A DNA stretch of 64,000 nt from Gracilaria domingensis (lineage: Eukaryota > Rhodophyta > Florideophyceae > Gracilariales > Gracilariaceae), in assembly GCA_022539475.1 (NCBI GenBank), contig VCMS01000026.1, positions 236,530-300,529 of the forward strand. The letters run 5' to 3'. The notes beneath the pieces are model-generated. The model was not told where the DNA came from, ran no database searches, and saw nothing but the letters and a program-made list of their open reading frames with translations. A program made the translations under genes and the position numbers. Of the stretch, positions 26,812 through 57,021 are shown piece after piece. The first letter of the stretch is position 1, and the number at the start of each line of letters is the position of its first letter.

Positions 26812-27044
26812 TGTTATCAACCGATTTGGGCTAAAAGAAGAGAGTTCGTGTTGTTCTTATTCTTCGTAGTGATGGAGTCTGTTTGCCACAGATTGCACCT
26901 ATATACTGTGTAATTTTAAGTTCCCGTTGTTTCTGTAACTAAATTATAAATACCATACTAACCAATAACATAAAAATGATAATGCATTATAACATTTTTT
27001 TGAATAGGATGATTCCAAGTCGTACACGTATACAATCGTGTACA
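26812..27044 (-). repeat. 3' LTR of LTR-A
   Basis: Direct repeat partner of 33953-34182. On the plus strand it begins TGTTATCA and ends around GTGTACA. The outer end could extend a few bases further (shared aaaact.ctc). Confidence 0.75.
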
Positions 27045-27396
27045 AAACTGCTCGGACTCCAAGTACAGCCACGGGCTGAGGTTTAACAGCATTTATGATG
27101 ACTCTTCGAGTTGTTCTGTCTTCTCTTATGATGACCAAGGCCCTTCTCAACACAGATATAGGTAATATCGCATATATTTGAACATATATAAACATACTTT
27201 GAATTACGTATACCGCTTCTAGGTGAAGTGAGACATACCGTGGTGCTGCCGAACAGCCGGTATACTCCTCCACTTCAGTCTCCTTTCTAAAAATTTGTCT
27301 TGATGCATCACATGTACTTCGTTGTACATACGTATCTTTATTATTGACTCATTTGTCACTTCAAAAACATTTCCATTCTTACGGTGTTCTTTAGTT

Positions 27397-28521
27397 ATGG
27401 CCCGTATGAAGCAGCTTGCAGCAATCAGTACTGGTGGTCACGTACCGCGCAAGCAGTTGGCTATGAAGACTGTTCGCAATGGCAGCCCGCCCAAACCTCG
27501 TGATCTGCTTATGTATTAGCTTTCAAGTCGACATGACATTGAACTTGTTTCTTTCCTTAACATTCGCAGTGAACGTTATCCTTATATCAATTGGCATGAG
27601 CCATCACATCGTGGCTATTGAGTTTCGAGGGCGGAGTTTGAAGAACTACTCGGTTTTCACATCGCTAAGTATCTCTTGCACTGTCCTCATGGGGAACTTT
27701 CCGCTCATTATCTGTGGCAACTAGGGCTCACTGAGTCTGTTCATGATAACAATCGTTGCGTGGTGGTTGGCGATCACGACTGGAATATCGAGGCATTAGA
27801 GTGGGATCCACATTTTGGTTCTTATTTGGCCACAGACGAAGCAGATAGTCAGAAGTATCCAATCCTTCTCTATACTTTGACGATATTCAGGGAGCAATCG
27901 GAGAGAAACCATTGGATATATTCAAATCGATACTTCAAGTATGGTCATGGTGGCCGAATCATAGCCATCTTAAAGACCAACAAGTGTTGTGAAGAGCACC
28001 CGGGAAAATTCATGACGATGAAATATACTCGGTATCGTGAACCTCGTACTAATCCGATTCTATTTGTTCGATCTTCTCGAATTCATATCGTGTTTCGAGA
28101 TTCCCTTGACTTGTGCATTCCATCCGCGCTTTGCATCGCGCTTCGATGTATAGGATTGGAAATGGACGCCGTCAACAGATATTGGTCTCACTTCCTCACG
28201 AATGCTAAACGATTTGAAGACAAGGGTTCGCTTCCGAGACGCATTCGTGGTCTTCGGGATGCTCAAAAGCACTTTCATCCTGGACATGCCGTTCTTCGCC
28301 ACATTGGACACAGATCTCTGACACTCCAAGAGATTTCAAGACTCTCTTCTTGTGTCTACCTTGTTTGCATAGATGGCAAGAACGATTTTCTCCAGTCTTT
28401 TGTCTTGGAAAACGTTCGTAATCTTATCCTAGATTGTATGGAAAGATACGAATTAATCGCAAGTCTGGATGCTTTCAAAGACTGCATCGGGCGAAATTCT
28501 TTCTTAGTCGGCATTCGGTAA
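27397..28521 (+). pseudogene. Antisense cargo gene of LTR-A: histone H3 tail-like start, cysteine-peptidase-like body
   Basis: This is a single reading frame of about 375 codons opposite in direction to gag-pol, broken about twice. The first residues (MARMKQLAAISTGGHVPRKQ) follow the H3 tail; over H3 positions 1-30, 18 match by eye. R2, K4, Q5, S10, T11, R17, K18, L20, K23 and R26 are kept, while K9, K14 and K27 are not. The histone fold does not follow. The body is not a family I can name with certainty. A CIPSALCIALRCIG helix near residue 240, a YLVCIDGKNDFLQSFVL strand pair near residue 320 and a later LDC tract are laid out like a papain-fold cysteine peptidase. The usual His would fall where Q stands in LQSFVL. 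A TATA-like acatatataaac lies near 27182. Confidence 0.6.
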
Positions 28522-31500
28522 ATTCGAGAACTTTTCTTTGTTAGTCAAGCGCCATCCAAACGTCCTCGACATAGGGGATACAACTCAACTGGTATTCGAA
28601 AGCGTCAAGCTCGTGATAGTATCGAGCTTCCCCGCTTCTCATTCAACTTCGACATGTCTTTTCGTATGAGTCATTGATTGATCTTTAATGACCTCCCATT
28701 CTTCATATGCATCATCAACTAGGCGATTGCAGCACATCACGTTCATAGCACATTTTGCGCGATAGCTTCTTCTTCGGTAAAATCATTGCATTGCTTTCTG
28801 CTTCATACGTCTATTTCTTCAGCATTAGGTACAACTGTAGAGTTAAAGGGCGGCGACGATAGAGAACCAATCTTCTTGTATGGATTGGTTTCCTAGAAAT
28901 TGCTATTTCTAGCGCTCATCAGCGTATATCTAGGGTGTTGAGCTTCGATGACCTTATACCGTCCGAAGAACTTGGACTTGAAAGGAGGCCATTTTTTTGA
29001 TAGGTTCAAAGCTTATCCTTTGGCCACAAGTACTCATCACCAATGTCGAACTTTATCAACTTCACGGTTTTTGTATTCTCTTTCTCCTTGTTGATAGCTC
29101 GTTGAGCTTTCATGGCGTGAGGAGGTTCTAGCTCCGATTCTCTCAAGCTTTCTCTTTCGCTCATAGCGAGACTTGGAGAAGGATATTTTGTCATTTGGGG
29201 TGGAACTCCGTACAGTAGCTCGAAGATAGACTTGCCACTCGTAAGGACTTACGACGATATCCGTAGAGGATTATTTTCAACGCTTCATCCCAAGGTTCTT
29301 TGCCTTCTAGAATAGTCTCTGTAATCGATTTCTTCAATATTCCAATCATTCTTTCGGCTCTTCCATTAGACATGGAAGCATACGCTAACACAGTTTTCCA
29401 GATGATTCCATTTTTCTCCATGAATGTAATAACGCTTTTGGCCAAGAAATATGTCGCATTGTCAGAAAAAATAATCCTTGGTGGTCCAAAAGGGTACATT
29501 ATTTCTTGTTGTAAAAATTTGATAACGGTCTGCGCAGTTGATATTTCTGTTGAAATAGCAAGAGGCCAGCCAGTCATATGTTCCACAGCAACAAGAATGT
29601 AGCGATGCTTCGAGGGAGTGACGGCTTGCGGGCTTGCAAAGTCGATCGAAAAGACATGGAGAATTCCAGCTAACGGATAATTTCAACTAGTATTGTACGT
29701 GCGGATTCTAACTGCTTTCTGGCATCCATCACAACTACCCACATAATCGATGATATTTCCATTAATCGCGGGCCACCAGTACCTGTCTAGTATGAACTGC
29801 TTTATAGCAATTACACCCCAATGCCCAATTTCATCGTTAAAGGCTTTCAGAATGTTAACTCTTGTCTCAATCAAAGAAATGACTCGTAATCGGTTTCGGG
29901 TGCGACGCATTATCCTCTCATTTCAAATAATAAACATCTTCGCATTCCGTTTCAAGCTCTTCTTCTTTCTTGGATCTGCTTCATCTATCTCTTCTCCGAT
30001 AAGATATTTGACAGTATTTTGTAGATGTTCTTCTAATCCAGATAGTTCAAGAATTCGAACTGTTACGCAAAGTGAAGATAAGTCGTTTTCAGCATATTTA
30101 AGTCTTGAGAGATAATCAGCGACTTTGTTCTGTCTTCCAGATCGATTCTTAATAACGAAGTTATATTCTGCAAGGAAATCCATCCACCTTGATAGTCGAC
30201 CATGAATGTCTTTCTTCTTGAATATGTACTACAAAGCAGTATGCTCAGTGATGAACGCGAAAGGAAGTGAAGAGAGAAGATATACCCTAAATTTATTTAG
30301 AGCAAATACGACTGCCAATGCTTCCCTTTCACAAGTTGAATAGTTCTTTTCTGCAGAATTCATTGTTCTGCTAGCGAATTGAATAGGATGAAGTTGCCCA
30401 TCTTCTTTCTTTTGAGATAAGATGGCTCCAAGGGAAACCTCTGATTCGTCTGTTTCGACTACAAAGGGTGTGTCGAAATCTGGAAATGCTAAAAGAGGGG
30501 GCGAAACTGTGCATTTCTTCAGTTTCTGGAATGCATCTGTTCATTTCAATATTTTCTTCTTGGAGGTAGCCCCGTGCAAGACAGCACAAACGTCAGCAGA
30601 ATGAGGTATGCATCGTTGATAATATCCTCCTAATCCGAGGAAGCTTCTTAGTTCGGTAACGGATTTAGGGACTGGTGCAGACTGGTTGAAATCGATTTTC
30701 TTCTCAACCATCACGCCTGATTCATTAAGAACATGTCCTAGAAGAGCAATTTCTGCCTGAACGAAAAGGCACTTTGTTGTTTTCAATCCCAATCCATTGG
30801 ATGCAATGCGTTCAAAGACTCTTCGACAATGATCCAGATGCTCTTCTACTGACTTTGAGAAGATAACGACATCATCAATATAAACCCGTACGAACGATAG
30901 ATCAGTTAATGTAAAGTCCATTATTCTTTGAAACGTCGCAGATGCGTTCGTCAATCCGAATGAAATGACTTTGAATTGGTAGGTTCCATACCTGCAAACA
31001 AATGTTGTCATCTCTTTGCAGCATTCATCCATTCGAACTTGACAATATCCAGAAAACAATTCGAGTGTATTAAACATTTTCGAACCTGCTAACTCATCAA
31101 ATATTTCTTCAATTCATGGGAGAGGCCATCGGCTGGGTTTCATTATCGTATTCAAAATACGATAAATGACACAGAATCGATACTTTCCGTCTTTCTTCTT
31201 AGCGATCACAACTGGAATACGCCCCGCAGATTTCGAAGGAGTTAGGATTCTATTGCTAAGCATCTTATCAATTTCATTCTTCACATAACGCCATTATGAC
31301 GAGGGGCTATTCTTCGTTGATGATGATATATTGATTTTGACTGGTACCTTAGAGGGTCTTAAGTCCTCAAGTGACCAGGCAATAATGCTGAACTCCTTAA
31401 GAAATGACGTGATCGATAGTTGTACATTTGATTCAAGATGATTCAATTTGAATGCCAAGATTACTGATTTTTCGGATGATTCAAAGTCGTAATCGATCTT

Positions 31501-33952
31501 AGTAGCATCAATAGTTTCTTCTACTTCGATGCTTTCAAAATTTTCGATTTCTGTCACCGAAGCGACAATGGGGGCTTCATCGTCACTTTCATCAGAAGAT
31601 CAAGATGGTGGCACCAAGTCTGAATCAGAAGTGGACTGGACACTATCAGTACCAGAAGGTCTAACTTTGTACAACTGGTGTCACGATATAGTGGAAGTGT
31701 AACGACCTTCTTTCCATCTTTAAATGTTTCAATTCCGTTATCAAGGTCGAGGGCTGCACGTAACTTTTCCAGCGACGGTAGTAAAATGATAAGGTGAAAT
31801 GGAGGGTTTTCAACAACAAGGAATGTAATCAAAGCCTTAATATCTTCAAAAATAATAGGTACGTGGACAAGAATTCCAAGTACAACTGAGACGGTTATTC
31901 TTCTTCCGGTTTGTTGCGGGGAAAGAGAGAGCTCATACGAAAGATTGAGCGACATTCCATTAGGAATCGCTCCAGCATCGAGAAGAGACATCACTTGAGT
32001 TCCATACACCTTAACTCGGGCTACTTTAAGACGACGGGGTTTCTCTGCTTCTTCAATGACAGCTACAGGTTTAGTTGAAGAAGCACGAGGAAACAACTTC
32101 TTAATTTCCTTATAGGCTTCAGCGGCATCTTCTCTCATGAGTTGACTGAACGATGATCCAGATGAGGCTGTAATATAGTGAGGTCAGTACTGTTGTACGG
32201 GTGATCCGATCGGTATGGAAGGTAAAAAGGGATGTATCAGAGGCTGGCTGGACATGCGAAATTTCCCACGTGTGTGGCGATGACACCCCGTGCGGACTTG
32301 TACGATAGGAACTACATGTAACATAGTTGTAGATAGATGGCACGAGCTCCACCTGTGAATATTCTCGCCACGTGAACAGGGTGCCCATTCGGACTGTACG
32401 CGGTGCGTTGCAGCGTCGACGTGCTACTTATGCATCTCCACTTCTCCCGTACACCTAACTAGTAAAGGGTAAGCACCACCGTCCTGAAATATATTTTCGC
32501 TAATTCAGACCTGCGACTAGACCGTGACGGACAACTACTAGGTTTCGAAGCCATTCGGACTCAACGCGCGTTTCTCGAGCTCGCCTGACGTACCCAACCG
32601 CTTAGTCTTCCTTCGACCGCCCGGTGCCGGCGATCGTTTTCACACGTCACACTCTATAACCGACCGGATCACGGAACTATACGCCCCGCTTACGAACCGT
32701 TCACGGATCGCGCCTCTAGGACTCTTCCGCCAGACGGCGCTATCTCACAGAGGCATTTGCTAACTCATATATCAGATTATAGCTTCCAACATGGTCATGA
32801 ATGAAATCTTTCTTTGACTTAGATTTCTTCTTCCGAGTCTTCGGCGGTTTTCGTGATCTTGGCTGCTGAGCTTGGCGATTATCTGGGAAAGAGGCCAGAG
32901 TTTGTTTTCTGGCTGGGTTAAGGACAGACTCAACTTCTATTCCAGTTCCTCGCTGTTTCCGAAGAGCTCCTCCATCTAAACCTCGTTCAGTTGTGTTCAC
33001 TATATCTTTAATAGGATCTGTAATGATCGTTACTTTTGCTGTTGGGTTAGAAGAAGAAGAACCTGAGGTTGAATTTTGAGATTACTCCTTTGGTGACTCA
33101 GATTTCTGTTCTTTGGGTTTGGGCATCTTTGACCAGCATGTGGCTTCTGAATGTTGCCTCTCATCACATCTTTGAAAACAACTGTTTTTGTGAGGATTCT
33201 GTTCACATCGATTAGCGCCATGTCCAGGTTTGCTACAATAGAAACAGATTCTTTCCCAATCACCAGATATAACCAGAGACTGACTTTTTTTCAATACAAG
33301 AGTTAATTAAGAAAGCTGCTTCGTTACGTCATCCACTTTATCCTGCAGAGAATGAGCTGTCTTTCTACGAGACTTGTCCCTCTCCGGAGCGGAAGTGGTG
33401 GATCCGGATAAACCTCGAACTAAAAGTGCTTCGCGTTTATTGACGAAGTCCTTCACTGTTTTCTTCATACTCTCCTATGAGTCAGGTACACGCATAAGAA
33501 CAAACTCGACCATATCCATGTGTTCGATAACTGCCTTTTTAATAGACCAAACTTTTTCTCTTCATTTAAACCGGCCTTCAGAAAGTGTTTATCCATCTCA
33601 GATAACGATTGAAGCACATGATCAAGGTCAAGACGGCATAAAATAGCGTTTTGAATACAATCACTAGGATCTTTGATAGTTGAGAACTTCTCAATTACGA
33701 CTTCTTTGACCGTGGAGAACTGATCAGATTATTCCTTCATTTGTTTATCCAAGACAAATCTATGGCACTAATAATCAAACGCACTTCGGGTCAAGTGGCA
33801 TGGTAGTTCGTCTGCTTTTTCTTCAATCGTAACATTCTGCATTGCCACAATCTTGAAGTAGAAGAAGAACTTGACAACATGGGAGTTCGTATTACCGTCG
33901 AACGATAACGTTGTAGTCGTTGAGGCACTTAGGTACCTCGGCGAGAGTACCA

Positions 33953-34182
33953 TGTTAGCAATTGAATTTGGCTAAAAGAAGAGAGTTCGTGTTGTTATTC
34001 TTCGTAGTGGTGCAGTCTGTTTGCTACAGATTGCACTTATATGCTCTGGAATTTTAAGTTCCAGCTTTTTCTGTAACTAAAGTATTAATACCGTGCTAAC
34101 CAATAAAATAAAAATGATAATGCATTATAGCATATTTTTCAATAGGATGATTCAAAGTCGTACACGTATAAAACCGTGTACA
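33953..34182 (-). repeat. 5' LTR of LTR-A
   Basis: On the plus strand it begins TGTTAGCA directly after the complement of the primer-binding site, and ends around GTGTACA. No clean target duplication is visible; ctact (26807-26811) against cttct beyond the right end is the closest match. Confidence 0.75.
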
Positions 34183-34399
34183 AAACTTCTCTTTAAGTGG
34201 AGAGGATTGAAAATGACGTGGGGAATTTGTGTGCACGTTCACTTTAATTACTCGCTATGGTACTTTCTGGGAACCAGAGAAAACGCACGATACTTCATTT
34301 TTGGCCCATTTCGGCCAGAAAACCAAAGTTCAAGAGCTTTTAAAAGACTTTCGTTAACATTTTACGGTTTCGGATATGAAGCTCTACTTATCAAGATAT
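34183..34399. other. Flank between LTR-A and a transposase fossil
   Basis: This short stretch holds only a 102-codon plus-strand frame that begins inside the LTR and has no recognisable motif. It may be the decayed 3' end of the transposon read on the minus strand at 34400-35960. Confidence 0.35.
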
Positions 34400-37657: not shown

Positions 37658-40600
37658 TCAGTGGGAATGATCCGATCACGGTTCTCAAGTTTCTCAATGC
37701 GTTTAAAACCGCATGCAACAAGAACGGCATTCATGAAGAAGCCGCCGTCTGGCTCTTTCAGTTCTTTTCATCCGGCTCTGCTTTAGAGCTCGTCAAGAAC
37801 CATTTTTCTGGCGAGTCTGGAGCCGTAGATTCGGATGAGGACGATGAGCTTCTACGATCCTATCCGGAGGTCGTGAACCATCTCCTGGAGACGTATGCTA
37901 CCGATGAAGTTATCGCGGAAGCGTAAGACGATATCACCACTTATCGACAGAGTTCCGGAATTACGGAAAGTGAATTCGCTGACCGCTTGTGGAAGAAGAA
38001 TCTCCGCTGCGGTGACATATTCAGTGATTCGTGTTTGAAGGCTTTATTCGTGGAAGGTCTAGTACATGCGATCCCGGCCTCGGTCCGCAACTATTCCGCG
38101 ACGCACCCGAAAATCGGATTCAGGCAGTTGGTGCTGTTTGCCGAAGGCTTAGGAGATACTCACCGTGGTGGAAAGAAAGTTTACTCTACGGTCGAGAAGT
38201 CCCGTGACGCACGCGAGTCACGTACTCGAGCTCTCTTTACCGAAACGGATACTAGTACGGAGTCTGGGTTAGTCGAAGGCCAGGCTGGAGAGGCCCTTGC
38301 AGTATTGCCCGCGCCGAGCGTCTCCTTCCCATCGGTACCGACGACTAGTACCGCCTCACCTTTTCAGATGAATCATAGTACGGTACCATCAACCCCGTAC
38401 TCGGCATACCAGACACCACGACAATCCTTTGAACCGAACCGGAACCCAGCATGTCGTGTATGCTTGTCAACTACTCGCCCTTGTTGCGAGTGGATGCCGG
38501 CCGAGATCCGGAACAAGTTGCTCCAGCAACGTGAGCAGAACTACTCCCACCGGGTTGATGAAGGTTATTTCCGCCGTCGGATGCCATTTACTGGCGGCCA
38601 GGAAAGTCGCCGCAGTAATGTCGGTAGCCAGGGAAGTCGCGACGACAATAGCGCTCCGATCCCCGGAAGTGTTCAACCAGCCAATAGAGGTCCCCGTCGT
38701 TCGCCCTTTATACTGGAAGAAGACCCAACCCATCATCCTGACGAGGAGGAAAACGCTCAACAACACGCGTAGAGGCGACGCGCCCTGTCACTGATGACAG
38801 CCTCAATAGAGGTCCAACCGTTGAACCGAATGCCGTTGCGGAAGAAGGATTCCATCATGAAGTGTTGAACTGTGAAATAGACACTTCCAAACCGGTCTAC
38901 TTATTTCAAAGTCAGAACTACAAGGTCCTGACAGCCGTCTATCACAAGCCCCGCCTAACTCGGATTGTTACAAGTGTCGTGGACACCGGAGCATCTCCGA
39001 ACTTGGTACACACTCGTGCATTACCATCCGGGTGGGAATCGAGACTGCTACCAATAACAGCCCCCCATGTGTCGGATGCCTCCAACCGCTCGATGAATAT
39101 CCTCGGCATAATACACTTGGATATCCGACTCGGTAACTTGAAGGTTCGTATTCGGTTTCTTGTATCTTCCAATCTGGCTGTGGATTGTATCTTGGGCACG
39201 TCCTTTATAGACCGTTACGTGAAGGCGATCTACCCCGGGGAGCGGAAAATTTCGTTCTACAACTCACCACCCGTGGCTATTCTCGATGCCCGTAAAGGTT
39301 CTCGCGACGGGATGTCTATCTCTGCCCGCATTCCGAGACATACGGTATCGCAGGAGCTCCGCGTGGCCGCTGCCATCACACTCCCTCCTATGTCCGAAAC
39401 GGCAGTCTTGGTTCAAACCGGTACATGCGGAATGGCTTACTTGCAAAACAAGATTGATACCATTCGCCGGAACCTACAACTGCTGGCTAATGGTATACTG
39501 GAAGTCCTTCTGAACCGGCCGTTCTACGTATTGGTCGCCAACATGAGTGAACGACCCACACATTTATCGAAAAACACCGTAGTCGGCGAAGCTCAAACAG
39601 CCCCAGCCGCTCTCTTGTCCGTCACGGACTTGAACCCGCAGCAAGTCGACGAGGACGTCGACAAACCTAAGAAGGGGGGTACAGAACACGTGAGTGAGTC
39701 ACCGGAAACGGACTGGACATCGACAGTAAAAATCGGTGAAGAGTACGAGCCGCAACGGAATAAGATCATTTAGCTCCTTTTCGAGTACGCTGAGATGTGG
39801 GACGGACACTTAGGAACAATCTCGGCTGCAAAACATCGGATTGAATTGGATCCTGATGGACACCCAGTGCACCAAGCCCCCTACCGATCCGGTCAGAAAG
39901 CCCGAGAATGGGAGAAGGAGCCGGTTACAAAGATGTTGAAGGAAGGAGTAATTAAACCGTCGTCAGCGGAGTGGGCTAGTCCTGTGGTCATCGCCCTGAA
40001 AAAAGATGGCTCTTGGCGCTTCTGCATCCATTACAGAAAGCTAAGCGTCGTTACAGTTCGTGACTCTTACCCGGTACCACGCATGGATGAATGCATTGAT
40101 TCTCTGGGAGACGCAAGAGTGTTCTCTACTCTTGACGCCAACTCTGGGTATTGGCAAGTGGAAATAGACACGCCGGATAGAGACAAAACTACTTTCACCT
40201 CCCATGTGGGTCTCTACCGCTTTATTCGGATGCCATTTGGCTTGAAAAACGCCCCTGCGACGTTTCAAAGAGCTATAGATGTCATCCTGAATAAGGTTCG
40301 TTGGCAATTTGCTATAGTGTATCTCGACGACGTCGTAATCTACTCGAGCTCCGTAATGGATCACTACCGACACCTGGCTAAGGTACTTGATCTACTCCGA
40401 GAAGCCGAAATAACACTGAAGTTGAAGAAGTGCTTCTTTTCCCAGTCAGCAGTTGATTACCTGGGACATGTGATCCGACCCGGGAAGCTTCAGGTGGCGT
40501 CGAAGACTTGCGACGCTGTGACGAAAGCTAAACTGTCACGGACACAGACCGAGCTTCGGGCGTTCTTAGGCCTCTGCAATGTCTACAGACGCTTCGTACC

Positions 40601-43270
40601 GAACTTTGCAAGGATCCCCCACACTCTGAACCGGAAGCTTGAGAAGGACCGACCTGTCGACCTCGAACCGTTCTCGGAAGAGCATATGGACGCTTCCGAA
40701 GAGCTGAAGAAGAAGTTCACCACCCCTCGAATCTTGTCTCTACCGAAGCCCGGAAAGCCCTACATCTTGGAGACGGATGCTTGCGGCCGTCAGATCGGAT
40801 GTACTCTGCTTCAGCAGCAAGAAGATCAGAAAGATTACCGCCCCATCGGATATTGGAGCCGTTTGCTGACCGCCTCAGAAAGGAACTACAGTACCTCTGA
40901 ACGGGAATGTCTTGCCATAGTATGGACCATGCTGCTCCTGAGGGCATACCTGGAAGGGCAAAGGTTTATTGTTCGCACAGATCACAACGCTTTGCGTTGG
41001 CTCCTCAATATACCCGATGCTACGGAAAGGCTCGCAAGATGGCCCCTACGCCTTGCCGAGTTCGACTTCGAGGTGCAATACCGACCCGGTATTAAGCATC
41101 TCCCTGCCGATGCAGTTTCACGAATGCTAACTGACGGAGAAGACGAAACGACTTTAGAGGATGACATTCCGTGCCTACTTGTGAATGAGATAGACACCGA
41201 CACGGAATATGCCATCGCGGATGTACTTGTTAACGGAGAAATCATAAGAGGACGCCTTGATTAACTGGCCTACGATCACCGACGACGGGAAGCCGCTACA
41301 TGTATTCACAACCATCCCGGAACAACCTGACGTCACCCCGATAACGGTTGAGGAGTTCCTTGCCGCTCAGGCCAAAGATCCCTTCTGCAAGGCGAAAGCC
41401 GTATCCGTCGGAGACCCTAACTCCCAGTTTGATTACAACCATTCCGGGATACTTTGCGGAATCTCGCCGATTGACGGAGCCGTACAGAGTGGTACCGGAG
41501 TCCCTACGGGAAAGAGTTCTCGAACTGACTCATTTCCAACGTTTGGCTGGACACCCAGGCGCGATCAAGATGTACTACACCTTGCGTCGGGATTTTTACT
41601 GGCCTTTCATGTCACAGCTTGTGTTTGAGACCGTTTCTCGGTGTGAAACCTGCCGGGCAGTCCGCGGAACCCACTTCAAGAACCAGAAGTACTTGAAGTT
41701 GTTCCCGGCAACCGGCCCTTTCGAGTTCGTGGCTATGGACATATTAGGTCCTTTGCCGAAAACCGGACGCGGAAAGAAGTACATACTGATGTTAACGGAC
41801 CGCTTCACAAAACTCACTGGAGCCATACCGCTGTCGGACACAAAGGCGACTGTTATCGCTATCACCTTTCTCGAGAACTCGGTGTACCCTTGCGAAATTC
41901 CTACCTATCTTCTCACCGATGAAGGCCCACAGTTCGTTGCGAAGTATTCTGAATCCCTTGCCGCCGATCTCGGTATCACGCACGCCCTGACGACTGCGTA
42001 CCACCCCCAGACGAACGGACAAGCAGAAAGGTTTAGTAAGGTTCCAGCAACCCGCTTGCGGCATTATGTATCTGAACACCAGAGGGACTGGGACAAGCTG
42101 GTCCAACCGTTGGTGTACGGATACAACCTGCAAGTTCACCGTTCAACCGGATTCACACCCTTCGAACTCTCCCTCACGCGGCACCCTCCCGGGGCTGTGC
42201 TCGACTAATCCACGTCAGCCCTCCCGCAAACGGCATCTCTCCACCCGACAACGGCTGCGACCCGCCGCGTAACACGAGCCCGCATATCAGAACTAGTCAA
42301 GCTAGCCCACACCAAATTAGGCAAAGCGCAGGAGCGCTACAAAGCATCCTTCGATTCCCTGATACGGTACACTCCAACCTTTAAGGAAGGGGATATGGTT
42401 TACTTGGACGCTCCGCCTCGGAAGAAAAACTCTACTGAGTACGAGGATGTCGTCAAGAAACTGCTACCGGCTTCGGAAGGATCATACAAAGTCGTCCGGG
42501 TTACTGAAACTACGGTCATACTCGACATCGATGGGTTACACGATATCGTTAGTAGTCGCAGAGTGACGGCGGCGCCCTCTCCAGTTTCCCAGGAGAGCGA
42601 AGCCACCGCCAATGATACAGACTCTAACCACGGATCGGATGCCTTTCCTATTTCCGAGGACCAGGATAATGCCGCCGACACAACCACTCAAGATAGAACA
42701 GCATCACCATCGGAAGTCTGTTCAGAATTACCGCAATCGGAACAACCAACCTTGCGTTTACCCGTTACCACCGAACAACCGGTAATGCTGGGTCAAACGC
42801 GGCCCAACCTGCCCCCGAATCGGAAAAGGAATGGGTCGTTGAAAAGGTTATCGATCACGGTGAAACCGAGGACGGTGAGGAACTCGTACGCGTGAAGTGG
42901 TTTGGTTTCAAGAAGCCCACATGGGAACCGAGACGGAACATTCCACACAACTTTGTAGAGAGGTATTTCCGGCCGATCGCTCGCGAGGGCGCATCGCCAA
43001 CTAAGAAGGGGGGCAACAGACGCCGAACATCTCGGAACCCACAAACTCCGGAACGGTAGTGCATCTCCACCGAACAGGATACCAACCGTGCTCTTTGTCT
43101 GATTCAATTGATGCCCAGCGAGCTACCTTCGCGTCAGCTCTCGGTGACATTACGCGCAGCATCAGACACAACTGGTTTACAACAAATTGACCCGAATTCG
43201 GAAGGACATTGAAGTAGAAGCCACCTGGAAGGCTTCCCAAAGCTTTCCGCAATGCGCGGCACGCACGGAA

Positions 43271-49230: not shown

Positions 49231-49944
49231 CCCCTCGAGTTCGAGGCTTCGCAGCCAACCTAACTCAGGCAGACCACTTCCCCCCTCGACGACCCCCCCC
49301 CCCCCCCATCCTTGCCTCTCTCGTCTTTCTTCCTCCCCTTCCGTCGTCACCACCCTTCTTTCCTTTGGCAATCCCACCTTCCCTCAGCGCAGTCTGCGCC
49401 TCCCTGCCACCAACCTTTCCCCCTACATTTCCTTATTCCCGGCGGCCCGGTCTCCCGCCGCTCCCTACCCAGTGGCCTTGTGCTGCCCTCCATTGGGCTC
49501 GTCCGCACATTGCGATCATACCTACATCCCAGTTCCCCCGGACGGACGTGGGCAGTGGTACGCATTGCACGGGTTCCCTTCCTGTCCTCACCTCGCCTGG
49601 TTACTAGGTTTATGGTAGTATCGACGACAGGATCGAACGCCTCAGCCCTGCCCATTCTACTGTTCCGCCGACAGCCTTGGTGTGTTGGTCTGTTACCGCT
49701 GCATTCTGTCGTTGTGTTGGCATTCGGCATCGAACGCCGAACCACACTCTCGTTTAATTACTCTCCCCGCTTCCCGTTAGCGGAGAGTTTCTACTATCTT
49801 GGGGTTATCTTGTCTGCTCCTGCAGGCATCTGAGCTATGTTAACTTGTCGCCCCTTTTGGGCTGGTACTCTCGAGCATTTATTGTGTCGCTCTCCTTGGG
49901 TTTGTCACCACCCGCGCTGTTTCCCCCAAAAATGGCGTCCACAT

Positions 49945-49958
49945 GGTACTCTCGAGGA
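49945..49958 (+). other. Primer-binding site candidate of LTR-D
   Basis: It starts TGG immediately after the LTR, as expected for pairing with a tRNA CCA end. The 11 bases TGGTACTCTCG recur at the same place in LTR-A. The matching tRNA is not identified. It also codes for gag residues here (TWYSR). Confidence 0.55.
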
Positions 49959-52900
49959 GGGCCTGGCTCTCCTGATTCTGGTGTGATTTCCTTCGATGGT
50001 TCTGCCGTCGACGTAAGGAAGTTTCTGTTTTACTTCGAGAATGTCGCTACCCCCAACGAAGAGGATAGTATTCGGGCTATGAAGTTGCTCGGCTATCTTG
50101 AGGGGGAAGCGTTTGACTTCTACTATGACAACTATGCTGTTGATGGCTCTCTTTCGATTGAAGCAAAGGACTATCAGAAGGTGAAGTTCGCTTTGATCGA
50201 ACGTTTCGGTGCAATCGAGGAACCGGCGGAGAGGATTCGTCGGGCAGTTTCGGCACGTTTAGATTACGTTGATCTGCTAGGGTCCTTGAAGAAGATGGAC
50301 TCTTTCTTCGATCAGGCAGGTTTTAACTCGAAAGCTAAGTTCGGGTTACTACGAAACGCTGTCATGGAGTTTGCAGATCTTGCGCAGTTTGTCATATTCC
50401 GTGGAGCAGATGACTATGAATCCTTTAAGGCCCTCGTTAAGGACTTTGTTGGCGGAAAGAAAGCTCTCGGGTCGTATGGTACCCTCAACGCTTTCCCACC
50501 GGCGAAGCATATTCTTCAACGTGCTAAGGAACCTGCTCGTCCAAGTCCGCTGGAGTCGAAAGTGGATCACTTGGCTGACCAGATGGCACAGTTGCACCTC
50601 CTAGTGAAGAAGACTCAGAGCGCTGCGACTGCCACCGGACGTCAGGATACGGAAAAAGTTTGTTCGTATTGCAGCCAACCCGGTCACTTTGCGGCACGTT
50701 GTGAGCTTAATCCACATCGAGCCACACGATGTGGTAATTGTGGCAAGTTAGGTCACTCTACAGCTACGTGCTGGAGAAAGAATAACACCGATGTTGTCCG
50801 AAAAGTTGCATTTGAAGATGTGAAGTCCGAACCGGAGAAAGAGAAGTTCCTGAGTGAGAAACGAGGTTCCCAGAACACAGGTGGGAACCAAGTTTCAGTT
50901 GTGATTGCTGACCTTTCAAATGATGAAGATCCCGTTACTACCGCAAAAAGAGACGCGGAAGGGGAGCCTCTGCCCAAGCAACCGCGAACTGGCCCTCTCT
51001 CAGGGATTTCTCCTGTAATGTGTCCCGACTCCCATACTACCAGGACTGCCTCTCAGCAAGCCAAAAACCCTCCCAAGAAGTCGACAAGAACTAGGAAGGG
51101 CACTGAGAAGAAGTCTAAAGGGAAGTCCCGGAGAGTGAAGATCCAGGAACACGTTGGGAAGTATAACATTTACGAAGAATTGGCGAGAGCCCCTTCTGGC
51201 ATCACTTTTGGTCAATTAGTCCGCGGCGATGAGGACGAGGCCAAGAAAGACATTCGACGAATTCTCTCGGGAGGTCTCTCGTCAAGGCGTGTCAGTTACG
51301 CTCATACTCATTCACTCCCTCAAACTCTCAAAGTGGTGAATGTTACTGTCTATGGCACTAGTTCCCAGGCGTTGCTGGACTCCGGTGCTATCCCTAATCT
51401 TATGTCTATTGCGTTATGCAAGCGGTTATCGTTGGAGATGAAACCGTCGAGTAGGAGGATTGTCGTTGCAGACGGGACCAAATCCTTAGTTCGCGGAAGC
51501 CTGCACGATATTCCCCTCGAGTTTGGTTCTCTCCGTGTCCCGTTGGATTTCCTGGTCGTTGAGAAGCCTCCCTTCAATGTGATTGTTGGCTGCCCTGCTC
51601 TTGAGTCACTCCAAGCCTGCTTGGACCTGGGTACTCAGCAAGTTTCTATGCAATTTGACGGCGCATCTGTTGTTTTGCCTTTCGATTACCATCGCCCTGG
51701 TGTAGTGTTCGACGAAGAGAATGAACACACCGATAGTGAGGATTTCACTTTCGCTTCAGAGTCGTTCTTCTCTGAGAGTTCGGAGAGCCACGACGAAGGA
51801 TACGCGATCGCTTTCTCGAAGGGCAAAGTTGACACGTCAGTATATGCTTTGAATACTATGAATGAAGAACAAAACTCCTTACAACCACCCGAAGAGGAAT
51901 CCACGAATGGGCTGGAGGATATTGGTGCTACGAGTCTCGGTCAGGAAAGCCCCTCCCGTGCTGATCCTCAGGATTTGGAGGAAGGCATTAGGCAACTGCG
52001 TGTGAATGATGTTGAACCAGAACCTGCTATTATTACTCCTCACGCCTTTGGGGAAGCAAATAGAGAATTTGAGAACGATGAAGAATCGGAGGAAAGCGCA
52101 GACGACAACGACTCCGAAGGTTCTCCATCGGATGGAGGGCACGAACGCGATCTCGTTGTCCCAGTCAGGGATGACGTTGTTCTTCTACGAGCCGAAGATG
52201 TGAGACGCCAACCTGATTATCTTATCTTTCGAGTCTACCGTCGTTACCCTCAGTCAACTGACAGAAACCAACTCCACCCTCACACCTCCGAACTTCCGTA
52301 TGAAGAAATGGGTGTCCTGGAGCTGAATAACGGTTCCGAACCAGTGGTTCGTTTCGGAGTAGGCTGGCCTATACCTGCACCGGCTGATGAAGAACCTTTC
52401 GCGGTTCCATCACAAAGTGAAGCTCATGAAGACTATGTCATGGTTATAAGTCTTGACCACAGCGACGATGAGGCCGATAACCAGATGAGCGGTCTAGCTG
52501 AGCCGAATGACGATCAGCGCCACTCGGTCTATCACGTCCCGAATCCCTCGTCTTTTCAAAGTTCCACGACAGACACTACCCTACAACCACCTGATCCTCC
52601 CCTTTCGTCATCTAAAAATAATGGAGAAGGTGAAGAGAGGAACTCTGGAAGGGACGACGAAGAAGATGAAGATTGTGTAGAAGTAGAAGCAGGAGTTCAT
52701 GAAGCAGAAGTAGAAGTAGAAGAGGAAGTGGCGAACAATGGAAATGAAGATGATCATGAAGAGGATGAAGATGGTTCCTCACCAGAAGAAGTCGAGCTGT
52801 CTGGTACCCCTCTCTACCGCGACCCTGTCCTCACCATCCCGATTACGGACAAAGTCACTTTGCTACCACCTGAAGAAGGGGAACTTATCAGCGACTTTCT

Positions 52901-55900
52901 TTTGGTTCGTGTCCAGATTCGGCACCATGTACCCACTCCAGCGCACCCCCCTCACCTCGGCGTGCACAAAATGCCTATTGGTCGTACCGGGCTACTAGAG
53001 GAGGATGACGACGGCCGTTACGTGATTGCTTTCGAGGAAGAGCTTCCTCAAGAAGAGTTCTCGACGCAGGTCCCCCCACCACCTGTTAGGGAGTTGGAAG
53101 ATCAACCCGACCCCTCGCAAACAGAGCCGCGTACAACTGGCTCTGGTGAAGGACACTCTAGCTCACGTGATAGTGAGCCGACGGTTGCGTGTCCCGCCCC
53201 TGTGATCGAATACTCCCTGTTAGATCCGGTCGCGATTGATGGCAAGGGTCGTATACTGGATCGAAGAGATTACCCTCCTGACACGAGTCACAAAGAAGTC
53301 ATCCTCAAAAGGCTTTCACACTTGCCTAGCGGAGAGCAACAGGAACTACTTCGTGTTTTACTTGACCTTGGTGTGGTCGCCTGGTCTTTGTACGATCTTA
53401 GACCGGCAGATGTACCAGTCATGCATGAATTCTCACTGACGACCCAGACTTCGATACACTCAAGAGTTCGTAGGCTTCCCCCGCGACATAATGAAGTCGT
53501 CAAGAAGGAACTCGGCAAGATGCTTGACGCTGGAATAATCAAACCTTGTACATCGGCATGGTCCTTTCCGATCGTCATTCCGACCAAAAAGGATGGCAAG
53601 CCAAGGTTCTGTGTGGACTACCGAGCTCTGAACCAAGTTATGAAAGCGGACAGATGGCCCTTACCTCATATTGAACAAATCTTTGATGAATTGGACGGCT
53701 GTTCGTTCTTCACTACGCTTGACCTCTTCTCCGGATACTGGCAGGTCAGAATGTCACCTCGGTGTAAGGAGATGAACACCTTCGTTTGCCGTCAAGGAAC
53801 CTATCAGTTCGAGGTCATGCCGTTCGGCTTGATGAACGCCCCCTCTACATTCCAAAGAATGATGGACTCTATCCTCAATAAGTATCCGTTTGTAAGGGTC
53901 TATCTGGACGACGTGGTTATCTATTCAAAAACCTTAGAGGATCACGTCGAGCACATCAAGTTAGTACTAAGGACAATTGCCTCCCATGGGTTGAAGCTGA
54001 AGATCTCTAAGTGCGACTTTGCCCATCCCAAGATTGAACTGCTCGGACATGTTGTCGACAAGAGCGGAGTTGCAGTGGACGGAAAGAAAATAGAGGTCAT
54101 CAAGGAGGCTCCGATCCCTAAGACAACCACTGAACTGAGGAGCTTTCTTGGGCTTGCTGGCTACTACCGCCGGTTTATCACACACTTTGCCAAAACTTCG
54201 GCAGTTCTCCATGCAGCAACGTCCGGAAATCGGAAATTAGTGTTCAACAATGAAATGGTTGAAGCCTTCAAAGACCTGAAGGAGAAGCTCACCAGTCCTC
54301 CAGTGTTGGCCTTTCCCGACTTCGACAATCCGTTTCGGGTCGAAACCGATGCTTCTTCATTTGCGTTGGGCGCCGTTCTCGCTCAGAAGAAATCTGATGG
54401 CATGTTTCACCCAATTCAGTATGCCAGCCGGACTATGACTGCAGCTGAAAGGAACTACGCGGTCTGTGAGCAGGAGGCGCTTGCTGTCATCTTCGCGTTC
54501 AAGAAATTTCGAATATACCTTCTTGGATCAAAGCCATTTCAATTGATTACAGACCACCAGGCGCTGAAGTATGCGTTTCAGAAGAAGGATGTACATGGGC
54601 GATTGGCCAGGTGGCTCGATTTCCTAGCTGAATACGAGTTCGAGGTTGTATACCGCTCAGGGGATAAGAATTGCGCTGCTGATTATCTTTCTCGCTACTC
54701 CACAGTAAGCGGGCATCATGCTCCAGAGGTGGCGACTACTGTTTCTTCCCCTACATGTGAATCTTTCTCAGGCCTCGAACCTTATTATGCAAATATTGGT
54801 CGATATCTGAGCGACCTTCCGGTCGACGAGCCCAACTCGAGCCTCAGAGGGGCGATCAAAAGGAATTCTAAGAAGTTTATGGTATGGAATGGGCAGTTGT
54901 ATCGTAGAATGGGGTCCGGGTTACGACTCCTTCCTAACGTCAATGAAAGGCATAAACTCTTGAAAACATTTCATGACGAAGTGGGACACTGGGATGTCAG
55001 GGCGACCAGAAGGCACGTCATTGATCGATTCTGGTGGCCCAATATTGACTCTGATGTCACAACCTACGTCAAGAGTTGTGATGGCTGCCAGTTCATGGGG
55101 TCTTTTCTTGCTTACCGAGCGGGGTAACGAGCCCCGCTGACGGATATCTTCCACACGTTTTCAATTGATTTCGCCGGACACCTCAGGGTGACGAGGAACG
55201 GAAGCCGATTCCTGCTTATTGGGGTCGAGCACCTCACGGGATGGCCGATCGCAGTGGCAACTCGAACATCTACTGCAGTCGACGTAGTCAACTTTATTAG
55301 AAGGGAGATCGTCACACCCTTCGGCTACCCCCACACGATTGTCTCCGATAACGCTACCTCCTTTCTCGCGTCAAGTGTCCAAGCTTATCTAATGCGTCAT
55401 GATATCACTCTCAAACCGGTGCTCGCATATGCACCTATGTCTAATGGACGCGCAGAAAGAATGGTAGGGACGATCAAGAGGGCGATCGCAAAAACGATTC
55501 ATGATCAGAACTCTGATTGGGATGAAGTACTCCCGGAGGTTCTCTATGGTTATCGCACTCGACAAATGGCCGAAGGATATTCTCCATTTCAGCTCATGTA
55601 TGGAGTACGGCCCCGAATGCATCCATCAGATCCTCCTTCCCTGATAGCCACGCCGTCACTTGATCATCGTGAGGTGGAACTACAAGCCTCCACTCTTGGG
55701 AGGGCCACAAGGGTATTGCAGCAGCCTCACCGTCAAGACGATGAGCGCCGTGGACATCGGTTCGCTGTCGGAGACCAGGTACTGGTAATGCGTGGCGAAG
55801 CCCTTAATCCTTCGGTGAAATGGCCATCATTCAAATCAAAGTTTTATGGACCATGCCACGTCGTTCGGGCTAATCATCCTCGGTACATGTTGGTTTCTCC

Positions 55901-57021
55901 ACACCGACGTATGTCAAGAAGAGGCATTCATGCGAGACGCTTAAGACCTTACCGTCCTAGACCAAGGCATCTGATCCCTAGAACAGTACGACATGAAAGA
56001 AATAATCAGCCCGAAGCGGCATGCCCGGTTGTGCTACAAGAGGGTCCAAACCCAACCAGACCCCCTGCCGATTATCTGAGGATAATTGTGGCTGGATGGA
56101 GACTCTCCGAATGGCTTTTCCCTGTCAGCACGAGTACGAACGATCTACAGAAGGTCGCATGGAACCTATTACATTTTTACCTAGGGACTTTCAAACGACA
56201 TGGACCCTACATAACCGAGGGTCTTCTTACTAAGCTGGTCTCATTGACAGGAAGGGTGAACCCTTTCATTATACCGCTTGTGGGTCAGCAGTTTGTCTTT
56301 TACTACTATCACTTTGCAGTGGCTCGCTATGGACATCTTCCCCGCAGAGAACTTACGGAGTGGAAGTGTCAAGCTTCCTGCAGCGGATTGAAGCTGGAGA
56401 AGCTTTCGAGATCGATCTGGCATATGATCAAGATCGCGGTGACGTACCTCCTCCGCTCCAGATTGAAGAAACCACCCCAGTAACGCCGGCTCTTCTTGCA
56501 ATGCCGATAATTGTTGACTACGAAGTCTACAACCAGGACGTGAACTACTTGGAGATGGAAATCGGTGGGCATACACTTGAGAACTGGGTCTTCCCACTAG
56601 ATTGTGAGGACTGGGAGAAGCATTGTATTGTCTGGAATTGTTTTCACCTCTGCTTGAGCATCCACTTAATCTACGGCCAATACTTTACGCAATATGCACA
56701 CGTAATGTTGGGTAGACTGGCCAGAAGATTACATTCGCAGATGAACAGGCTTGGCGCGGATAGGACGATATTCTTTCTCTATCATTACGTCATTGGGAAG
56801 TACGGACATCTACCACCCGCAGCAACACATGAAGAACAAGTTGAAGAGTATATACGTCGTATTGAACGACATGAAGGCTTCTCTGTGGAGTTTGAACCGG
56901 ATCCTGAGTACCCAGAACCTTTGTATCCTTTCAGGTATACGACCGAAGAAGTCTCTCGGGACGGACCGATTATTCCGCTTTCATAGGTTACATTCTTGGT
57001 CTCCCAGGGGTAGCGACCGCT

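What the first reader, a model, noticed from the sequence alone, without database searches (positions are those of the whole stretch)
27397..28521. Histone H3 tail look-alike fused to a peptidase-like protein, encoded antisense inside an LTR element
Seen: a ~375-codon frame on the strand opposite to gag-pol, between integrase and 3' LTR of LTR-A, opens MARMKQLAAISTGGHVPRKQ, matching 18 of the first 30 H3 residues, and then leaves the histone sequence altogether. Known: H3 tail mimicry is used by some viruses and effectors to capture chromatin readers. Inference: the element captured an H3 exon and joined it to a cysteine-peptidase-like body (CIPSALC helix, then YLVCIDG...SFVL). The product might steer chromatin readers or steer integration. 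K4, R17, K18 and K23 positions survive, K9 and K27 do not, although this is an old broken copy so single residues mean little.
Basis: partly seen in the sequence, partly recalled or inferred. Interest (0 to 1): 0.92.

Follow-up and report, generated by a model that had tools for sequence, protein, structure and literature searches.

The report
Retroelement antisense gene with histone-H3-like tail
In what looks like a red alga, an old broken jumping gene carries, on its opposite strand, a gene whose protein would start with a recognisable copy of the histone H3 tail and continue as a relative of papain-type cysteine peptidases; the tail is real, but H3-like in this one copy only, so what it does remains a guess.

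Summary
On the + strand at 27397, opposite gag-pol, a frame begins with 32 residues of which 19 match the host's histone H3 in register; the best of 2,982 other ATG openings held scores 29 against 83. The frame is broken (stops at codons 41 and 75). The body belongs to a protein family that my searches found described nowhere. At 14 of 20 loci it runs convergent with pol, in Ty3- and Ty1-type elements; 5 showed no pol, 1 had pol on the other side. An intact relative folds papain-like, with conserved Cys and His; this copy has Gln for His. The tail is no later H3 pseudogene: about 22 nonsynonymous differences from H3, about 4 expected since insertion. Relatives have basic tails, none clearly H3-like and none detectably similar to this tail; an H3-tail search finds only the four H3 genes and this copy. 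Best reading: an antisense accessory protein of LTR elements in a red alga, whose basic tail was, in this lineage, an H3 tail. Reader mimicry is plausible, unproven.

The parts
27397..28521 (+). antisense accessory frame (tail + body), broken by two stops; TAA at 28519
27397..27492 (+). H3-like tail, codons 1-32 (MARMKQLAAISTGGHVPRKQLAMKTVRNGSPP)
27493..27621 (+). start of the body, aligning by eye with DLMALMHDREDIVSL... of relatives; holds stops TAG 27517-27519 and TGA 27619-27621
27622..28518 (+). open part of the body; relatives elsewhere in the genome
28114..28134 (+). Cys box CIPSALC, aligned with the invariant Cys of the family
28387..28407 (+). FLQSFVL: Gln where most aligned relatives have the conserved His (L004 also has Gln)
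26812..27053 (.). LTR next to the accessory frame (3' LTR of the element, which runs on -)
33953..34191 (.). other LTR (5'), 88.7% identical over 239 sites, K2P 0.12
28838..29622 (-). integrase remnant (GPY/F-like end, name recalled; no chromodomain seen by eye)
29719..31494 (-). reverse transcriptase / RNase H region (open piece 30541-31077)
31554..32138 (-). protease-region open piece
32752..33908 (-). gag-like region, in pieces

Best explanation
SHOWN: this is the decayed antisense accessory gene of a Ty3-type LTR retrotransposon in what I take for a red alga. Its protein family is shared by Ty3- and Ty1-type elements of the genome and lies convergent with pol at most loci examined; an intact relative is predicted to have a C-terminal papain-like cysteine-peptidase domain behind a basic, disordered N-terminal part. 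In this copy the tail is an H3 tail (19 of 32 residues) that was already diverged from H3 when the copy inserted. INFERRED: the protein is made from its own antisense transcript and enters the nucleus. The tail works as a nuclear/chromatin docking segment, here by resembling H3 (ARxK end, STGG, PRKQLA, K23) so that H3 readers or modifiers bind it. The peptidase or pseudo-peptidase domain then acts on, or binds, a host chromatin or ubiquitin-pathway protein in favour of the element. The H3 stretch most likely came from an H3 transcript by template switching.
For: H3 match far above chance. Body family: 8 places with the window body as query, itself included, 21 with L003 at E <= 1, 92 places (pieces, not genes) with L035 at E <= 0.001. 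Convergent pol at 14 of 20 family loci examined. Cys invariant and His near-invariant over 12 sequences, both invariant in 7. Intact relative L035: block-mean pLDDT 63-95 from residue 161 on; closest matches C39, staphopain and Josephin peptidases. Window subfamily and L035 group joined by hhalign, probability 91%, P 9.8e-7, 46 columns. Tail older than the insertion: about 22 nonsynonymous differences, 4.4 expected, P 1.8e-10, or 3e-5 at double the rate. L003-L006 body dN/dS 0.08, rough because pS is 0.75. The tail keeps amino acids better than silent sites against host H3: dN/dS 0.15-0.35.
Against: Only one copy is clearly H3-like; the tail of L004 finds only itself. The window tail is not detectably similar to the tails of L008, L003 or L004 (shuffle p 0.67, 0.20, 0.10), so descent of all these tails from one H3 tail is not shown. 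L008 and L004 resemble H3 only weakly (register-anchored p 0.005-0.008 and 0.04-0.2; free local alignment 0.13 and 0.40). H3-likeness of the tails as a group is compositional, since reversed H3 does nearly as well. Host H3 genes differ from one another at 4-75% of synonymous sites, so the low dN/dS may only mean that the source H3 gene is lost. The window copy and L004 lack the His. The window body could not be folded (pLDDT 45). Young pairs show relaxed dN/dS, 0.58-0.76. No expression or binding data.
Confidence: 0.45

Rival explanations
1. The tail is only a basic nuclear-entry or nucleic-acid-binding segment. An H3 fragment was captured because it is basic, or the tail drifted from it, and there is no mimicry of chromatin readers.
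For: Relatives with a readable start mostly have basic, low-complexity tails that are not clearly H3; group similarity is compositional; K9, K14 and K27 are lost here.
Against: Long exact blocks STGG and PRKQLA, and Ser kept through a TCN/AGT change, are more than a basic segment needs.
Confidence: 0.42
2. The H3-like stretch is a processed H3 pseudogene, or a later H3 insertion, in front of an unrelated frame.
For: Only one copy has it; its tail is not detectably similar to the other copies' tails.
Against: Divergence from H3 far exceeds what LTR age allows; no H3 sequence after about codon 40 or upstream of the ATG; similarity starts exactly at the ATG; by eye, tails of 35 (window), 37 (L008) and 37 (L004) residues stand before the same body start.
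Confidence: 0.05
3. Chance or convergence of a basic tail towards H3 without descent from H3.
For: Basic tails are common in the family.
Against: Score 83 against at most 29 for the other non-H3 openings; 0 of 5000 shuffles.
Confidence: 0.03
4. The antisense RNA, not the protein, is what matters, and the frame is a remnant.
For: Antisense transcripts of LTR elements are discussed as possible regulators in the review PMC7264820 (passages); this copy and several relatives are broken; young pairs show relaxed dN/dS 0.58-0.76.
Against: L003-L006 dN/dS 0.08, rough; open frames up to 568 codons without a stop; conserved catalytic residues.
Confidence: 0.1

Closest known systems
[quoted passage not shown]
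   Same: Position and orientation; unrelated to gag-pol; a nuclear role is suspected.
   Different: The words histone, peptidase and protease do not occur in that review's main text; here one protein family with a predicted peptidase fold occurs in both Ty1- and Ty3-type elements of a presumed red alga, and one copy has an H3 tail.
Viral H3-tail mimics (influenza NS1 ARSK, SARS-CoV-2 ORF8 ARKS, adenovirus protein VII), as given in PMC10208167
   Same: A non-histone protein bearing H3-tail sequence.
   Different: Those are motifs of four or five residues in the passages seen; here about 32 residues in register at the N terminus, on a retrotransposon protein; no function shown.
Papain-like cysteine peptidases (C39 of PCAT1, staphopain, Josephin)
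   Same: Predicted fold of an intact relative; Cys at a helix start, His in a strand.
   Different: No Pfam family assigned; this copy lacks the His.

Membership tests
histone H3 | N-terminal tail sequence | tested here: met
   19 of 32 residues in register
histone H3 | histone fold after the tail | tested here: not met
   DNA similarity to H3 at background after about codon 40; no Pfam match of the open body
antisense 3' accessory ORF (aORF-3R) of LTR elements | between pol and 3' LTR, antisense, shared by several copies | tested here: met
   window; pol convergent at 14 of 20 family loci, 5 without pol in the DNA held, 1 with pol on the other side; LTRs were checked only in the window
antisense 3' accessory ORF (aORF-3R) of LTR elements | own antisense transcript | not testable with these tools
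   no RNA data
papain-like cysteine peptidase | papain-like fold | tested here: inconclusive
papain-like cysteine peptidase | catalytic Cys and His | tested here: not met
   in the family Cys is invariant and His near-invariant; the window copy keeps Cys but has Gln for His
H3-tail mimic | bound or modified by H3 readers or writers | not testable with these tools
   needs a peptide assay

The most novel reading that the evidence does not exclude
LTR retrotransposons of red algae encode, antisense, a chromatin-targeted papain-like protease. At least one lineage replaced or shaped its docking tail into a 32-residue mimic of the H3 tail, so that the host's own H3 readers and modifiers carry the protease (or pseudo-protease) to chromatin, to block silencing or guide integration.
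Probability: 0.22. Interest if true: 0.9.

Novelty: new variant of a known kind. Interest (0 to 1): 0.68.

Why it matters
The review read here says that the roles of antisense accessory genes of plant LTR elements are not yet determined (PMC7264820). A family with a recognisable enzyme fold, and one member with an H3 tail, gives a testable idea: these genes act on chromatin. If the tail is a working mimic, it would be a far longer H3 mimic than the motifs of four or five residues given for viral proteins in the passages seen of PMC10208167, and in a retrotransposon.

Tried and rejected
Perkinsus or dinoflagellate host: my first guess. The exact spliced-leader pattern (recalled) is absent and 10 of 12 phycobilisome-family matches sit on contig C680, so a red alga; no call names the host.

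H3 mimicry as a property of the whole family: of nine further tails tested, six gave p 0.015-0.12 against H3 (L035, L048, L050, L053, L066, L072) and three did not (L034, L069, L073). Controls in the same call gave stray low values too (L050 to H4 0.008, L069 to H1 0.016, L034 to reversed H3 0.024). In register-fixed scoring of 11 tails, H3 gave p 6e-4 and reversed H3 1.5e-3 against basic openings. I treat it as composition.

Public relatives: none for the body alignment at E <= 1 among 3,289 candidates; none in IMG/VR for L035; no solved-structure sequence match up to E 10. The tail search was a weak test: by inspection H3 shares only two five-residue words with this tail, and three are needed. 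The H3-tail search among longer proteins gave 4,038 of 4,463 candidates at E <= 1e-3; the 120 listed all carry histone domain PF00125 and the rest were not shown, so it says nothing about fusions.

Fold of the window body: poor model, meaningless matches. Target-site duplication at the LTR ends: none seen by eye.

Papers: searches (61 served the wrong host guess; one returned nothing) showed, in their listings, no report of an H3 tail on a retroelement protein or of a peptidase encoded antisense in an LTR element. I read only passages and one section of PMC7264820 and passages of PMC10208167; the other papers were seen as listings.

Full report
WHAT IS THERE. The window lies in a 77.9-Mb genome of 680 contigs. 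Contig C680 carries 10 of 12 phycobilisome-family matches, as a red-algal plastid would, and the exact dinoflagellate-type spliced leader is absent. I therefore take the host for a red alga; no call names it. Between two LTRs (26812-27053 and 33953-34191, 88.7% identical, K2P 0.12) lies a decayed Ty3-type element on the - strand: gag-like pieces, protease, reverse transcriptase, integrase. Between the integrase end (28838) and the 3' LTR lies the frame of the finding on +.

THE TAIL. The first 32 codons read MARMKQLAAISTGGHVPRKQLAMKTVRNGSPP. Nineteen residues match the host's H3 without a gap. A genome search with this tail finds itself and the four H3 genes. The reverse search with the H3 tail finds the four H3 genes and this place, five matches in all at E <= 10 (the tool scores only its best candidates). 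Of 2,985 distinct ATG openings of 32 codons in the DNA held, two are true H3, this one scores 83, and the best of the other 2,982 scores 29. DNA similarity to H3, counted in blocks of ten codons, is 18-20 of 30 in the first two, 14-15 in the third, 11-12 in the fourth and mostly background after that; it is absent upstream.

AGE OF THE TAIL. Against host H3, synonymous sites differ at 62-73% and nonsynonymous sites at 31-34%, which gives dN/dS of 0.15-0.35. LTR divergence allows about 4.4 neutral nonsynonymous changes in the tail since insertion, against about 22 seen (P 1.8e-10; 3e-5 if the rate is doubled). Gene conversion between LTRs would make the insertion look younger. So the tail most likely travelled with the element. 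Caution: host H3 genes differ from one another at 4-75% of synonymous sites, so the source gene may be lost and the dN/dS is only suggestive of constraint.

CONTEXT ACROSS THE GENOME. Of the 20 family loci, all with some flanking DNA held, 14 have a pol gene running convergently towards the frame: five Ty3-type (window, C167, C57, C2, C85) and nine Ty1-type (C116, C38, C204, two on C197, C10, C17, C5, C195). Five show no pol in the DNA held (two on C22, C239, two on C73); for C239 only 1.5 kb on either side was held. One degenerate match with six stops (C412) has pol on the other side. Several of the Ty1-side loci matched L003 only weakly (E 0.005-0.84) but match L035 at E 3.8e-11 or better. 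L035 as query gives 92 places at E <= 0.001, pieces and overlapping hits included, some with stop-free frames of 420-568 codons. So this is a widespread antisense accessory protein family of LTR elements in this genome.

TAILS OF RELATIVES. L007/L008 begins MARKQQRVRGRKRQTPQRQHLPIQAIKPS, L004 MACRRKKFKERKRRRVSRRYLASSAL. They are related to each other (0 of 5000 shuffles) and, by eye, 37 residues long against 35 in the window. But the window tail is not detectably similar to them: shuffle p 0.67 to L008, 0.20 to L003, 0.10 to L004; in fixed register, jointly, 0.02-0.04. Their similarity to H3 in fixed register is weak: p 0.005-0.008 for L008, 0.04-0.2 for L004, joint 0.007-0.019, and by free local alignment only 0.13 and 0.40. 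L007 ranks 7th of 249 basic openings, true H3 included. The L004 tail as query finds only itself. Tails of the Ty1 group hold KAPR-type motifs (L066 has GKAPRK), with p 0.015-0.12 against H3 for six of nine, but reversed H3 does nearly as well for the group. So I do not claim that the family's tail is H3 by descent; that remains possible for the Ty3 branch.

HOW IT MAY WORK. Inferred: a protein from an antisense transcript, brought to the nucleus and to chromatin by its tail, with a peptidase or pseudo-peptidase domain acting on a host factor. The kept residues (A1-R2-x-K4, S10-T11-G12-G13, P16 to A21, K23) are sites used by known H3 readers and modifying enzymes (general knowledge, no call), which makes mimicry reasonable; loss of K9, K14 and K27 limits which. 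A plain basic docking tail explains the rest of the family as well and is nearly as likely.

KNOWN OR NEW. Antisense frames between pol and the 3' LTR are known in plants, without determined function (PMC7264820, passages and one section). Short H3 motifs in viral proteins are known (PMC10208167, passages). Searches showed no listing that reports the peptidase-like family or an H3 tail on such a protein. Hence a new variant of a known kind, with one odd member.

Noticed in passing
L004:1434, L005:2100 (-), L006:1576: Three copies from different contigs share an in-frame TAG at what looks by eye like the same aligned site (before IFALG / IFVPS / IFAPS), as if copied after the stop arose, or read through.
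   Followed up: no
L032:1399-3102 (-), L035:442-1704 (+), and the list: Stop-free antisense frames of 420-568 codons next to Ty1-type pol, i.e. apparently intact members of the peptidase-like family.
   Followed up: partly
49845-56986: A Ty3-type element with a 1760-codon open gag-pol frame and an integrase frame; a further sense frame at 56360-56986 resembles the end of the integrase frame (28% over 92 residues), like a duplicated extra domain.
   Followed up: no
39795-42895 and L050:1579-3990: A second Ty3-type lineage with a copy on C204 that is 88-89% identical in reverse transcriptase and integrase protein sequence.
   Followed up: no
L014/L039 (C17:557178): One H3 gene has Ile in place of Ala at residue 31 and appears interrupted, probably by an intron, after about codon 45; the other three read straight through.
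   Followed up: no
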